A stretch of 32,348 bases of DNA, taken from Hyphomicrobiales bacterium. GTDB taxonomy: Bacteria > Pseudomonadota > Alphaproteobacteria > Rhizobiales > Xanthobacteraceae. The notes under the pieces are model-generated. The model saw only the letters and a list, made by a program, of their open reading frames with translations, did not search any database and was not told where the DNA came from. A program made the translations under genes and the position numbers. Of the stretch, positions 1 through 32,348 are shown one piece after another (within the stretch, counting starts at the first letter, position 1; each line of letters starts with the position of its first letter). Location: assembly GCA_016185205.1 (NCBI GenBank), contig JACPOA010000009.1, forward strand, positions 1-32,348. The letters are read 5' to 3'.

Positions 1-129
1 AGCGCAGAAGTCAGCAGAGGGCATAGTAGGCGGAGCGCGCTTCGCCGAAGGCCCGAACGTTGGCAGGACGCTCGAATGTGGAGACCTCGGACCGGCCATG
101 CGGCCGAATATCCAGGTGCCTGGCCTTTG
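1..129. repeat. Terminal direct repeat, copy A
   Basis: The first 129 bases are identical to the last 129 bases of the window (32220-32348). The repeat lies inside a group II intron, between its domain I-like 5' part at the right end of the window and its domain V/VI at the left end. The match runs to both physical ends, so it is either the overlap of a closed assembly path or a shared segment of two intron copies. Confidence 0.95.
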
Positions 130-250
130 GGGTGACGGGAACGGGTGACGCCCGGACGGCGTTGCTCGAAGGGACCGAAACCGGTGCGGCGGGCTCCATG
201 ATTAAAGCCTCCGGCGTTGACGCGAAAGATCGCCAACGCTTAATCCAGCG

Positions 251-284
251 AACCGCCGTATACGGACCCGTATGTACGGTGGTG
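251..284 (+). ncRNA. Group II intron domain V
   Basis: The hairpin folds with a lower stem at about 253-260/275-282, an upper stem at about 261-264/269-272, a GACC loop and a two-base bulge on the 3' side. The lower stem contains a C-G-C triad at 254-256 whose central G pairs with U280. This is the G-U wobble expected for the catalytic triad of domain V. The bases on either side of the bulge can shift by one pair. Confidence 0.8.
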
Positions 285-348
285 TGGGAGGGGAGGAGCC
301 GCGAGGCTCCCCCCTATCCCGATTCATAACGCGAACATATCATATTCT

Positions 349-20216: not shown

Positions 20217-21634
20217 CATTACAGTTGCGCTTTCTTTTTGAGGTATGCGCGGCGCGCTTCGGCTTGGTGGGCGCGCCGCCAGAACGACCATGCGATGACG
20301 TGAGCGTGTGGGATGCGCCGTTGAGCGAGCTTGATGGCGATGCGGCGGATTTCCTGGATCGACCAGCGGATCAGGAACGTTTGGTCCGGAGGCGCGGCAG
20401 CGTTTTTTTGGGCGCCACGACATTTGCCTGATGGCGGATGACGGTCATCATGGCGAAGGCGAGCATGACGAGCGAGACATGGCGGTGCCAGCCATGCCAG
20501 GAGCGCGTTTCGTTGTGATCGAGGCCGAGTTCGTTCTTGGCGGCTTCAAAACTGTCCTCGATGGCCCAGCGGCAGCCTTCGACCGATACGAGCTTTTCCA
20601 TGGGCGTGCCTTTGGGACACCACGTGGAGAAGAAGGCGAGTTCGCCGTCGGCGATGTTGCGGCGGATCAACAGACCTCGCGTCCATTCCCCCGTGAGGGC
20701 GCTGTTGTATTGGACGGCATCGAGATCGGCCAGTTCGAGATAGGCCCAGTCATGCAGGCGCGGACCCTTGGTTCCTTCGCCCGCCGACAGGCGCCGCCAG
20801 GCGTTTTTGGGAAGAGTTTGCGCGATCTTGGCGGCGGTGCCGCCCACCATCTGCTTCTTGCCCCAGGAGTGGAACACGTGGTTGCAGGCGACGCCCAGGA
20901 CATAGCCCTTGCCGGCCTTGCGCAGGGTGGTCTCGATGTCCCCGGTACCATACACGCTGTCTGCCGCGACGAACGAGAACGGCACCTTGGCCGCGATCGC
21001 GCGCGCAATTATCCGGCGCGCGATTTGGGGTTTCGTCGCAAAGCCCACAGTCTTCGGTACATGCGCCGCCTTCAGGCGTGCGCGATCGTCCGTCCATTCC
21101 TTCGGCAGATAAAGCGCGCGATCGATGAAGGCGTGACCGTGATGCGACACATAGGAGGCGAAGACGCCGATCTGACAATTGGTGATCTTGCCCGCCGAGC
21201 CTGTGTACTGACGTGCAACTCCGCACGACGCCTTGCCCTGCTTCAAAAAACCGGTCTCGTCGACGACCAGAACCGCATCCTCATCAGCCAGCGTTTCCAG
21301 CGCGTAATCGCGCACGATGTCGCGCAAGGCATCCGCGTCCCACCGCCCGCGGCCCAGGATCGCCTGTTGACGCCACGGCCCGGGATCGCCCGCCGCTTCC
21401 GCGCGCATCCAGCCCGTCTTGCGCGGTTCGTTCCCCAGAAGCCCGTCGAGAAACTGTCCCGCCGAGGCCGCCACCCGCTTCTGACCGAACAACGTATGTA
21501 TCCGCCCCTTAACATCCCGCAGCGACGATGCCCAAAGCTCCAGCGTCGTCTCGATCGATGCTCCCGCCATCCATGATCCTCCGAATCATGGGGGCTCATG
21601 GATTCAGAAGTCGATATAAAATGCAACTGTAATG
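20217..21634 (-). mobile_element. IS701-type insertion sequence, intact
   Basis: This 1418-bp element has identical ends CATTACAGTTGC (20217-20228) and its complement at 21623-21634. It is flanked on both sides by CTAG (20213-20216 and 21635-21638), the YTAR-type 4-bp target duplication expected of the IS701 family. The target was palindromic (GCCTAGGC), so two extra bases on each side also match. One full-length transposase fills the element. Confidence 0.9.
20371..21570 (-). CDS. IS701 family transposase
   Basis: A 399-residue DDE transposase of the DDE_5 superfamily. The first catalytic aspartate is in AVLVVDETGFLKQG, followed by GVARQYTGSAGKITNCQIG. The second is in FVAADSVYGTG, and the glutamate is in WAIEDSFEAAKNELGLDHNETRSWHGWHRH. 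The start has a GGAGG ribosome site about 8 bases upstream. No frame break is visible, so the element may be active. Confidence 0.92.
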   Translation of the reverse strand: MAGASIETTLELWASSLRDVKGRIHTLFGQKRVAASAGQFLDGLLGNEPRKTGWMRAEAAGDPGPWRQQAILGRGRWDADALRDIVRDYALETLADEDAVLVVDETGFLKQGKASCGVARQYTGSAGKITNCQIGVFASYVSHHGHAFIDRALYLPKEWTDDRARLKAAHVPKTVGFATKPQIARRIIARAIAAKVPFSFVAADSVYGTGDIETTLRKAGKGYVLGVACNHVFHSWGKKQMVGGTAAKIAQTLPKNAWRRLSAGEGTKGPRLHDWAYLELADLDAVQYNSALTGEWTRGLLIRRNIADGELAFFSTWCPKGTPMEKLVSVEGCRWAIEDSFEAAKNELGLDHNETRSWHGWHRHVSLVMLAFAMMTVIRHQANVVAPKKTLPRLRTKRS

Positions 21635-29780: not shown

Positions 29781-29968
29781 GGTCGTTCCTCCAAGGCCAC
29801 GGCGTTCGACAGCACGCATCGTGCCGATCCGTGCGCGTCGTATCGAGTGGCACACACATAATGGCTACCTTCGGCATCGCGATCCAGTGGCCGATGAAGG
29901 GCTCCTCCAAAATCACCGGCGTCGTCGGATTCAGGGTGTACCACCTCAACGAGGGCGGATAGCATCAT
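29774..29968 (-). CDS. Possible small gene between the His-rich and DUF2189 genes
   Basis: A 64-codon frame beginning MMLSALVEVVHPESDDAG, with the protein-like middle ALHRPLDRDAEGSHYVCATRYD and ending ALEERPW. Its ATGATGA start overlaps the stop of the His-rich gene. Its stop overlaps the ATG of the DUF2189 gene, whose ribosome site lies inside this frame. This chain of overlaps, and the sensible composition, favour a real gene. The absence of a strong ribosome site and of a recognised homologue leaves it open. Confidence 0.45.
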   Translation of the reverse strand: MMLSALVEVVHPESDDAGDFGGALHRPLDRDAEGSHYVCATRYDAHGSARCVLSNAVALEERPW

Positions 29969-30330
29969 CCGTGATGGCCGCCGCCATGGCCGCCGCCGCC
30001 ATGTCCGAAGCCGCCATGCCCGAAGCCGCCATGCCCGAAGCCGCCATGCCCGAAGCCGAAACCACCGAAGTGGCCATGATGGAACCCATGGTGGTGGTGA
30101 AAGCCCCAAAATGGCACGTAAGCATAGCGCGGGTAACAATATGGCCGGTAAGCATAACCCGTGTAACAGGCGTACCGGCGATAATGGACGAGTTGATTGG
30201 CCGAGCCTGCCTCTTCGATTTCCGCTCGGATACCTTTTGCTAGCGGCATGGCGTGAGCAGGATCAGGCATGAGCGATCCAAGAAGCGGGACTGTCAGCGC
30301 TGCGACTATCGCGAGGGGAAGCTTGGGCAT
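29965..30330 (-). CDS. Exported His/Gly-rich repeat protein
   Basis: A 121-residue protein with an AAAAGGAGG ribosome site and a clear signal peptide (MPKLPLAIVAALTVPLLGSL, cut after AHA-27). The mature part starts MPLAKGIRAEIEEA, has a Tyr/Cys stretch (YRRYACYTGYAYRPYCYPRY) and ends in a His/Gly tail with HHHHGFHHGHFGGFGFGHGG and four GHGGF-type units. The N-terminal plan is that of small secreted rhizobial proteins with Tyr- or His-rich ends, of unknown function. The histidine tail could bind Ni, Zn or Cu, which is inference. The C-terminal tail is encoded by a 15-bp tandem repeat that can change length. Confidence 0.75.
   Translation of the reverse strand: MPKLPLAIVAALTVPLLGSLMPDPAHAMPLAKGIRAEIEEAGSANQLVHYRRYACYTGYAYRPYCYPRYAYVPFWGFHHHHGFHHGHFGGFGFGHGGFGHGGFGHGGFGHGGGGHGGGHHG
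30001..30060 (-). repeat. Four 15-bp tandem repeats in the His-rich gene
   Basis: Four units (30001-30015, 30016-30030, 30031-30045, 30046-30060) follow the plus-strand form ATGCCCGAAGCCGCC. Units 2 and 3 are identical; the outer two differ at one or two bases. They encode the repeated Gly-Phe-Gly-His-Gly motif. The period is a multiple of three, so slippage would add or remove residues without breaking the frame. Confidence 0.9.
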
Positions 30331-30568: not shown

Positions 30569-31600
30569 TACCCTGACTCCCCGAGAATCCGAAGAATCCC
30601 CTTGCCAAACGGAGCGATCCGGATTCTACCGAACGGATGATACGGGCCGGGTTTTTGGACAGAGAATCGCGGCAAGACCTGATCGAGTTGGCTCGGAACG
30701 GATCGGCTGGCATCGCCTGTATGAAGAGGATGGAATCGAGGGCCTGACAAATTTCGGCTACGAGGGCAGCGCTTGCCAGTTGAGCGGCGAGCAACAGGAA
30801 ACCCTGAAGGCCTGGGTCGCCGCGGCCTTACCGCGCACAACGCGCCAGGTCGGCGCCTGGATCGAGAAGGAATTCGGGCTCGTTTATGAAAGCCGCTCGG
30901 GATTGATCGCGCTCTTGCATCGTCTGGGGCTGGAGTATCACAAGCCGAGTGTCATTCCGCGCAAGCTCGACAAAGAGAAGCAGAGGGCGTTCATCGAGAG
31001 CTACGATAATCTCTTGAATTCCCTGGCGGACAACGAAGCCGTGTTGTTTGCGGACGCGGTACATCCGACCCATGCCGCGCGGCCCGCCGGCTGCTGGGCG
31101 CCGAGCCAAGAGAAGCTCGCGATCGAGCAAACGAGCGGGCGTCAGCGCATCAACATTCACGGCGCGATCGATCTGGAGACCGGCCAAACCCGGATGATCG
31201 AGGCTCTGACCATCGACGCCGCCTCGACGATCAGGCTGCTGGAATCGATCGAGGCGTTCTATCCGATGCTGGCGCTCATCCATGTTTTTCTGGACAATGC
31301 GCGTTATCATCACGCCAAGCTCGTGCAGGAATGGCTAGCTCTGCCGGGACGACGGATCAAGCTGCACTTCATCCCAACCTATTGCCCGCACTTGAACCCG
31401 ATCGAACGGTTATGGGGTGTGATGCACAGAAATGTCACGCACAACAAGTGCTACGCAACTTGCGCCCAATTCGCCGATGCGACGCTCGGGTTCCTGCGTG
31501 AAATGGTTCCTCGGAATTGGGCTGACCTCTGTGATTCGGTCACCGACAATTTCCGCATCATCAACCCCAAGGATTTTCGGGTTATGACGTGAACGGGGTA
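30569..31600 (+). mobile_element. IS630-type insertion sequence, defective
   Basis: The element is bounded by TATACCC at 30567-30573 and its complement GGGTATA at 31596-31602. This is consistent with IS630 ends flanked by a duplicated TA. Similarity of the ends beyond these bases is weak. At about 1030 bp it is shorter than expected because part of the transposase gene is deleted. Confidence 0.65.
30637..31592 (+). pseudogene. IS630 transposase with deletion in the N-terminal HTH
   Basis: The family N-terminus MIRAGFLDRESRQDLIELAR begins at 30637. Near 30705 it jumps to WHRLYEEDGIEGL in a different frame. About 35 residues of the helix-turn-helix region normally found between these segments are missing. 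From there to 31592 the frame is intact: FADAVHPTHAARPAGCWAP (first Asp), HVFLDNARYHHAK (second Asp) and CPHLNPIERLWG (Glu). The longest continuous frame starts only at a TTG at 30780, so no DNA-binding domain would be made. The comparison with the full-length family is from memory. Confidence 0.82.
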
Positions 31601-31712: not shown

Positions 31713-31744
31713 GGGAGGAGCCGCGAGGCTCCCCTTATCCCGTT
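31713..31744 (+). repeat. Domain VI-like hairpin, remnant of another intron copy
   Basis: The segment GGGAGGAGCCGCGAGGCTCC followed by CCTTATCCCGTT is nearly the same as the domain VI end of the intron at 286-323. It keeps the GAGCC-GCGA-GGCTC stem and the TATCCCG tail. It directly precedes the GTGTG start of the intron at 31745. No domain V accompanies it. Confidence 0.7.
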
Positions 31745-31840
31745 GTGTGCCGAGCATGATCGACAGCTTGGAGATGAAAGTCCTTTATCCAGCCTGATGG
31801 TGGCGAAGGATTAGCGAAGCGCAAGGGCGTCATCGCGAGG

Positions 31841-31983
31841 CAGGGCAATCGCATATGAGTATAGGAGGAATCAAAAGATTCTCCCGAGGCAGTATTCGCA
31901 AAGTAGTTTGGAGGATTTTGATCCACGACCGCTTCGATCCGGAGAACCAGATTCTCCGCCGAATTCCATATGCGATTGCCCTG
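31841..31983. mobile_element. 143-bp MITE-like element inside the intron
   Basis: The ends are perfect 17-bp inverted repeats, CAGGGCAATCGCATATG (31841-31857) and its complement (31967-31983), with imperfect pairing further in. The flanks are identical 10-bp sequences, CATCGCGAGG, at 31831-31840 and 31984-31993. Removing the element and one flank restores the conserved domain I sequence. It encodes nothing and must have been moved by a transposase supplied elsewhere. Confidence 0.9.
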
Positions 31984-32219
31984 CATCGCGAGGTGGGGTC
32001 TGAAAGAAGCGTGGAGCAAAACCGCGGCCCGATGGACAAGAACCGGATACGAGGCCTACCCGGCCGGACGAGCGAGCAACTGATCGCGAAGTCCACGGCC
32101 ATCAAGGACCGGGGTGGTAAATCCGGCGGGCGTGCGGCGAAGGCGGTCGATCTTACCTCGGGAGATCTGCGCTGTGTCTTGGATTCGAGACTGAGGTCGT
32201 CGCAAGGCGATCTGACCGC

Positions 32220-32348
32220 AGCGCAGAAGTCAGCAGAGGGCATAGTAGGCGGAGCGCGCTTCGCCGAAGGCCCGAACGTTGGCAGGACGCTCGAATGTGG
32301 AGACCTCGGACCGGCCATGCGGCCGAATATCCAGGTGCCTGGCCTTTG
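32220..32348. repeat. Terminal direct repeat, copy B
   Basis: Identical to positions 1-129 and ends at the last base of the window. See the copy at the left end for interpretation. Confidence 0.95.

What the first reader, a model, noticed from the sequence alone, without database searches (positions are those of the whole stretch)
31841..31983. MITE inserted into group II intron domain I with a 10-bp target duplication
A 143-bp non-coding element with 17-bp perfect terminal repeats sits in conserved intron RNA, flanked by CATCGCGAGG on both sides. It inserts a long self-complementary stretch into domain I. This could abolish splicing, or be tolerated as an added hairpin. Mobile DNA nested in a ribozyme is uncommon, and no transposase with these ends is in the window.
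Basis: seen in the sequence. Interest (0 to 1): 0.7.

Follow-up and report, generated by a model that had tools for sequence, protein, structure and literature searches.

The report
Small transposon inside a group II intron
A 143-base piece of mobile DNA that cannot move by itself has jumped into one copy of a self-splicing intron in a bacterial genome, landing in a short RNA hairpin, while an almost identical intron elsewhere in the same genome still shows the untouched site.

Summary
Window 31841-31983 is a 143-bp non-coding element with perfect 17-bp terminal inverted repeats and a perfect 10-bp target duplication (CATCGCGAGG) in domain I of a group II intron. Four copies exist in the genome (the other three have 1-3 mismatches); only the window copy was found in an intron, and an almost identical intron on contig C91 has the exact empty site. 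Ends and duplication length match ISAs1-family insertion sequences of a relative, and the host shows such IS ends at contig breaks (8 right, 2 left). So this is an ISAs1-type MITE. Over 43 related insertions the duplicated site tends to be a palindrome tip (mean 5.1 of 8 symmetric pairs; random 2.1), but the intron site is a weak example (3 of 8). In RNA the target is the apical GCGA-loop hairpin of subdomain D1c. Folding predicts that target copies and terminal repeats pair into one long arm extending D1c, with the empty intron's other predicted pairs kept. That is not special: 47 of 96 other positions tested also keep them. The right-hand duplicate holds a complete copy of the original hairpin. 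The effect on splicing is untested. Ordinary mobile DNA at an instructive site.

The parts
31745..32348 (+). 5' part of a group II intron (GTGTGCC start) without a reverse-transcriptase gene, running off the contig end; interrupted by the MITE
   Evidence: Rfam hits; 99-99.5% identical to C91 and 90-93% to the C9 intron, which is 641-642 nt long; the only RVT_1 match in the genome is on C10
31831..31840 (+). left copy of the 10-bp target duplication CATCGCGAGG
31841..31983 (.). 143-bp MITE with ISAs1-type ends
31841..31857 (+). left terminal inverted repeat CAGGGCAATCGCATATG
31967..31983 (-). right terminal inverted repeat, perfect complement of the left
31984..31993 (+). right copy of the target duplication
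31984..31995 (+). complete copy of the D1c hairpin (CAUC-GCGA-GGUG) formed by the right duplication plus the next two bases
   Evidence: Rfam D1D4-3 alignment starts at 31982 with 127.5 bits, against 126.5 bits for the empty C91 intron
31982..32152 (+). group-II-D1D4-3 match
32191..32272 (+). group-II-D1D4-1 match
1..323 (+). 3' part of a copy of the same intron (RF00029 at 251-323); its first 129 bases equal the last 129 of the window; not proven to belong to the MITE-bearing copy

Best explanation
The 143-bp element is a non-autonomous miniature transposon (MITE) whose ends are of the kind read by an ISAs1-family DDE transposase. It transposed, making a 10-bp duplication, into the apical hairpin of subdomain D1c of a group II intron that has no reverse transcriptase of its own, so one non-autonomous element sits inside another. 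Shown: the element, its ends and duplication, four copies, the empty site, full-length ISAs1 elements with matching ends and duplication length in a relative, ISAs1 ends in the host, and a general bias of elements with these ends for palindrome tips. Inferred: that the host's own ISAs1 copies supplied the transposase, that the intron hairpin was chosen because it is partly palindromic, that the GCGA loop is the theta contact, and that in RNA the target copies and terminal repeats pair into one long D1c extension that displaces this loop, or else the loop survives in the right-hand target copy. I expect reduced but not necessarily abolished splicing.
For: Four copies at 98-100% identity (the others differ from the window copy by 1, 2 and 3 bases). 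Duplications perfect in 3 of 4 and 7 of 10 in the C29 copy. No Rfam family at gathering level in the 4-kb stretches round the other three copies. Exact empty site on C91: flanks match at 99% and 99.5% and overlap by exactly the 10 target bases. Relative G169 (L051) carries two adjacent full-length elements with these ends and 10-bp duplications; their proteins score 329.2 and 331.9 bits on NF033564 ISAs1, cut-off 70. Host: 8 contig ends (on 7 contigs) stop 109-137 bases inside a CAGGGGAATCGCATGTG end, and 2 contigs begin with the C-terminus of an ISAs1 transposase followed by a CAGGGCTAT end. Target bias: 43 insertions with duplication identity of at least 9 of 10 average 5.07 of 8 symmetric Watson-Crick pairs about the duplication centre, against 2.14 at random positions and at most 3.35 in 1000 arm shuffles; 33 of 43 score 5 or more. 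Hairpin: Rfam structure; D1c and theta: PMC12660903, passages.
Against: The intron target scores only 3 of 8 symmetric pairs and 1 in the stem test, where 91% of random positions did as well, so the bias does not by itself explain this insertion. No complete ISAs1 element is in the host assembly, only ends, and the MITE shares little beyond its terminal 14-19 bases with the ISs compared, so the exact parent is unidentified. The MITE-bearing intron runs off the contig. Folds are secondary-structure predictions of a 5' segment; in the 183-nt piece the restored right-hand hairpin has probability 0.0.
Confidence: 0.9

Rival explanations
1. The element is mobilised by a DDE transposase outside ISAs1 (for example of the IS4 or IS1380 group) that happens to share CAGGG ends.
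For: ISAs1 transposases also hit IS4, IS1380 and IS701 models weakly, and the host has 11 matches to PF01609, 10 of them over its cut-off, most of which I did not examine for ends.
Against: Those weak hits are far below the models' cut-offs. Such ends with 10-bp duplications bound proven ISAs1 genes in G169 and lie next to ISAs1 pieces in the host.
Confidence: 0.05
2. The insert is an original domain I helix of this intron lineage and the empty introns lost it.
For: It folds into a stable hairpin that continues the D1c stem.
Against: The same element sits at three other loci without an intron match. Precise loss of the element and one target copy would be needed on C91, and the more diverged C9 and C106 introns also lack it.
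Confidence: 0.02
3. The insertion is as described, but lies in a dead or dying intron copy, so the site is neutral and no structural tolerance is involved. (Compatible with the best explanation except for the splicing part.)
For: The C19 copy cannot be followed past the contig end; the only reverse transcriptase found belongs to an intron about 69% identical; an intron 3'-end fragment lies next door at 31713-31742.
Against: The flanking intron sequence is 99-99.5% identical to C91 and scores as well as the empty copy on Rfam, so no decay is visible, though a young insertion would not show it yet.
Confidence: 0.45

Closest known systems
ISAs1-family insertion sequences (NF033564)
   Same: CAGGG... 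terminal repeats and 10-bp target duplications, as in the two elements of G169 (L051). IS-sized pairs with the same ends and perfect duplications are also in L053, L054, L058, L117 and L146, but their genes were not tested against a family
   Different: 143 bp, no transposase; interior unrelated to the full-length elements compared
Other MITE-sized elements with the same ends
   Same: Same ends, duplications of 9-10 of 10, lengths 163-356 bp, e.g. in Bradyrhizobium, Mesorhizobium, Rhizobium, Reyranella and Phenylobacterium records
   Different: Other lengths; interiors not compared in detail. A one-sequence nhmmer search with the C9 intron found no intron round any of the kept loci among the 133 searched
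IS elements that target REP palindromes, such as ISRm22 and ISPsy8 (PMC1525189: abstract and Results section read)
   Same: Insertion at or near the symmetry axis of a palindrome
   Different: Duplications of 2, 3 or 6 bp, or none, where the Results give them; ISAs1 is not named in the paper (0 occurrences)
Group IIC intron of Oceanobacillus iheyensis (structural reference)
   Different: No insert; the class of the window intron was not formally assigned

Membership tests
MITE of the ISAs1 family | terminal inverted repeats shared with an ISAs1 element | tested here: met
   18 of 19 end bases with a G169 ISAs1 element; 13 of 14 with the host's own IS ends
MITE of the ISAs1 family | target duplication of the same length (10 bp) | tested here: met
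MITE of the ISAs1 family | short, without transposase, several copies | tested here: met
   143 bp, 4 copies; ISAs1 transposase matches only on C90 and C7
MITE of the ISAs1 family | mobilised in trans by an ISAs1 transposase | not testable with these tools
   needs a transposition assay
MITE of the ISAs1 family | complete ISAs1 partner in the same genome | tested here: inconclusive
   8 right ends and 2 left ends with C-terminal transposase pieces at contig breaks, no whole copy assembled
Group II intron | conserved domain structure including D5/D6 | tested here: inconclusive
   RF02001 and RF01998 are met on the MITE-bearing copy; RF00029 (D5/D6) is found on the contig start, C9 and C106 but cannot be joined to the MITE-bearing copy
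Group II intron | 5' GUGYG start (recalled consensus) | tested here: met
   GTGTGCC at 31745, aligned with the starts of the C91 and C9 introns
Group II intron | splicing | not testable with these tools
   needs RT-PCR

The most novel reading that the evidence does not exclude
Elements with ISAs1-type ends seek DNA palindromes, and genes for structured RNA are incidental targets. Because element ends and target copies are both self-complementary, insertion into an RNA hairpin merely lengthens that hairpin, so a ribozyme can absorb a transposon and stay active. The D1c arm of group II introns would then be a natural port for expansion.
Probability: 0.2. Interest if true: 0.6.

Novelty: new member of a known kind. 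Interest (0 to 1): 0.36.

Why it matters
It is a clean natural experiment: the same genome holds an intron with and without a hairpin transposon in the arm that docks domain II, so the tolerance of a ribozyme to an arm extension can be measured directly. It also shows, over 43 insertions, that elements with ISAs1-type ends prefer palindrome tips, with a 10-bp duplication centred on the axis. I did not see this stated for the family in the listings of four searches (open-access library only, listing capped at 15 of 330).

Tried and rejected
Plasmid searches with the MITE and with the host IS end gave no match. C101 and C61, among the DDE_Tnp_1 loci, were looked at as possible parents; the stretches fetched (first 5000 bases of C101, all 3429 of C61) have no exact CAGGGGAATCGCATGTG end and were dropped. 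The same-family search of 296 genomes found matches in 7, the host included; the other 6 match over 24-44 bases only, and at most two candidates per genome were scored. I expected the site to be unusually harmless to the fold. The control said otherwise: of 97 grid positions, the observed one included, 48 keep every predicted pair outside the duplicated bases, the median is 98.8%, and only the energy is rather low (4 of 97 as low or lower, the observed one included). I expected the intron site to be a good palindrome; it is not. A stricter stem test over the 43 sites was significant for 26 of 43 only. A nhmmer search of 133 fetched loci (L045-L058 and L070-L188) with one intron gave 2 hits: in L079 an ISAs1-type end at 1655 lies just downstream of a truncated intron remnant (Rfam 1414-1616, 38.1 bits), and in L143 intron hit and end are about 4 kb apart; neither repeats the window arrangement. 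Rows dropped: end pairs without 10 bases of flank on each side were skipped uncounted; of 82 pairs, 38 had duplications below 9 of 10, including the host's C29 copy, and 1 was the compound pair of L051, leaving 43. Passages of PMC5082802 and PMC3281130 gave nothing on this element or its target. Paper searches 50, 51 and 53 served for REP targets and theta; one found nothing.

Full report
Observation. The element is at 31841-31983 (143 bp), with perfect 17-bp terminal inverted repeats CAGGGCAATCGCATATG and flanking CATCGCGAGG at 31831-31840 and 31984-31993. Rfam places group II intron domains directly to its right (31982-32152 and 32191-32272), and the intron's GTGTGCC start is 96 bases to its left, at 31745.

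It is mobile DNA. The same 143 bp occurs four times in the genome at 98-100% identity (the others differ by 1, 2 and 3 bases). Duplications are CATCGCGAGG, CCCCGAAGGG and CACCACATGG (perfect) and CCCTGAAAGG/CCCTGCGGGG (7 of 10). The 4-kb stretches round the other three copies have no Rfam match at gathering level.

Empty site. Contig C91 holds the same intron: 31741-31840 matches C91 455-356 at 99%, and 31984-32348 matches 365-1 at 99.5%; the two overlap by exactly the ten target bases. The C9 intron (90% over the 5' part, 93% over the 3' part) and the more diverged C106 intron also lack the insert. C9 gives the intron length, 641-642 nt. The only reverse transcriptase that PF00078 finds in the genome (assembly 96% complete) is a group II maturase (TIGR04416, 409.9 bits) in a diverged intron on C10, so the short introns would need help in trans (inference).

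Parent family. In relatives such ends bound full-length elements. G169 (L051) has two different ones side by side, 1199 and 1184 bp, with the 10-bp sequence CCCTCCAGGG before, between and after them: it looks as if one reused the duplication made by the other. Their proteins score 329.2 and 331.9 bits on NF033564, ISAs1 transposase, cut-off 70. In the host, 8 contig ends on 7 contigs stop 109-137 bases inside an end CAGGGGAATCGCATGTG, and 2 contigs begin with the C-terminus of an ISAs1 transposase (52.2 and 44.3 bits, truncated and below the cut-off of 70) followed by the other end. A repeated IS collapsed in the assembly is the natural reading; no whole copy is assembled. The MITE matches the host IS at 13 of 14 terminal bases and a G169 element at 18 of 19, with nothing convincing inside.

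Target choice. Pairing ends 60-2600 bp apart in these and earlier loci, plus three host copies, gave 82 pairs. After dropping 38 with duplications below 9 of 10 and one compound pair, 43 remained. About the duplication centre they average 5.07 of 8 symmetric Watson-Crick pairs; random positions of the same loci give 2.14, and 1000 arm shuffles reach at most 3.35; 33 of 43 have 5 or more, against 4.3% of random positions. The 34 short elements average 4.94 and the 9 IS-sized ones 5.56. Symmetry peaks at the duplication centre. A stricter stem test was significant for 26 of 43. Against my reading: the window site has 3 of 8 and fails the stem test (91% of random positions do as well). It does share C at position 1 and GG at positions 9-10, the commonest bases there.

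Place in the ribozyme. In Rfam RF02001 the first 16 positions form a hairpin with a four-base loop; in the empty intron this is CAUC-GCGA-GGUG. The target duplication covers the inner 5' strand, the loop and two bases of the 3' strand. In the O. iheyensis intron the homologous hairpin is at 84-99 by a sequence I recalled, inside 'peripheral D1c' (80-102); D1c bears theta, which contacts domain II (PMC12660903, passages). That the GCGA loop itself is theta is my inference.

Predicted consequence. The MITE-bearing 5' segment folds with all predicted pairs of the empty intron outside the duplicated bases retained, and 97.8% of all its pairs. The target copies and terminal repeats pair with each other, turning the short hairpin into a long branched arm. 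Enforcing the restored right-hand hairpin costs about 15 kcal/mol in a 183-nt piece (-66.7 against -81.6), and its ensemble probability there is 0.0. Retention is not special to the site: 47 of the 96 other grid positions do as well, as expected for a self-complementary insert. Two states are thus conceivable: a fused arm without the GCGA loop, strongly favoured by the energy model, and an intact hairpin in the right-hand copy, which as sequence still scores 127.5 bits on Rfam against 126.5 for the empty copy. Splicing could be weakened, lost or tolerated; no data here decide.

Verdict. It is an ISAs1-type MITE, a new member of a known kind. Searches for earlier reports of MITEs or ISs in group II introns (one search listed 12 of 23) and of palindrome targeting by ISAs1 showed none that I recognised from titles and abstract openings; most listed papers were not opened. 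Targeting of REP palindromes by other ISs is known (PMC1525189, abstract and Results).

Noticed in passing
window 1-129 and 32220-32348: The two contig ends are identical over 129 bases of intron: an assembly break in a repeated intron (or, less likely, a circular molecule). C91 ends in the same 129 bases.
   Followed up: partly
window 31713-31742: A piece 93.5% identical over 31 columns to the 3' end (D6 region) of the same intron type lies immediately upstream of the intron start, as if an intron inserted next to the remnant of another.
   Followed up: no
window 30780-31592: Open frame with an IS630-family transposase match (NF033545, 158.6 bits) that lacks the first 56 profile positions, upstream of the intron.
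   Followed up: partly
window 20458-20988: A weak DDE_Tnp_1 (PF01609) match on the minus strand, 31.6 bits, not ISAs1.
   Followed up: no
L051 292-2684: Two different ISAs1 elements in tandem share one 10-bp target three times (before, between, after), as if a target duplication had been used again.
   Followed up: partly
L079 1337-1671: A truncated group II intron remnant in the Bradyrhizobium sp. 139 record is followed by a C-rich stretch carrying an ISAs1-type end.
   Followed up: partly
window 29980-30070: Tandem repeats of about 15 bases (GCCGCCATG...CCGAA) inside a reverse-strand open frame (29965-30330, 121 aa).
   Followed up: no
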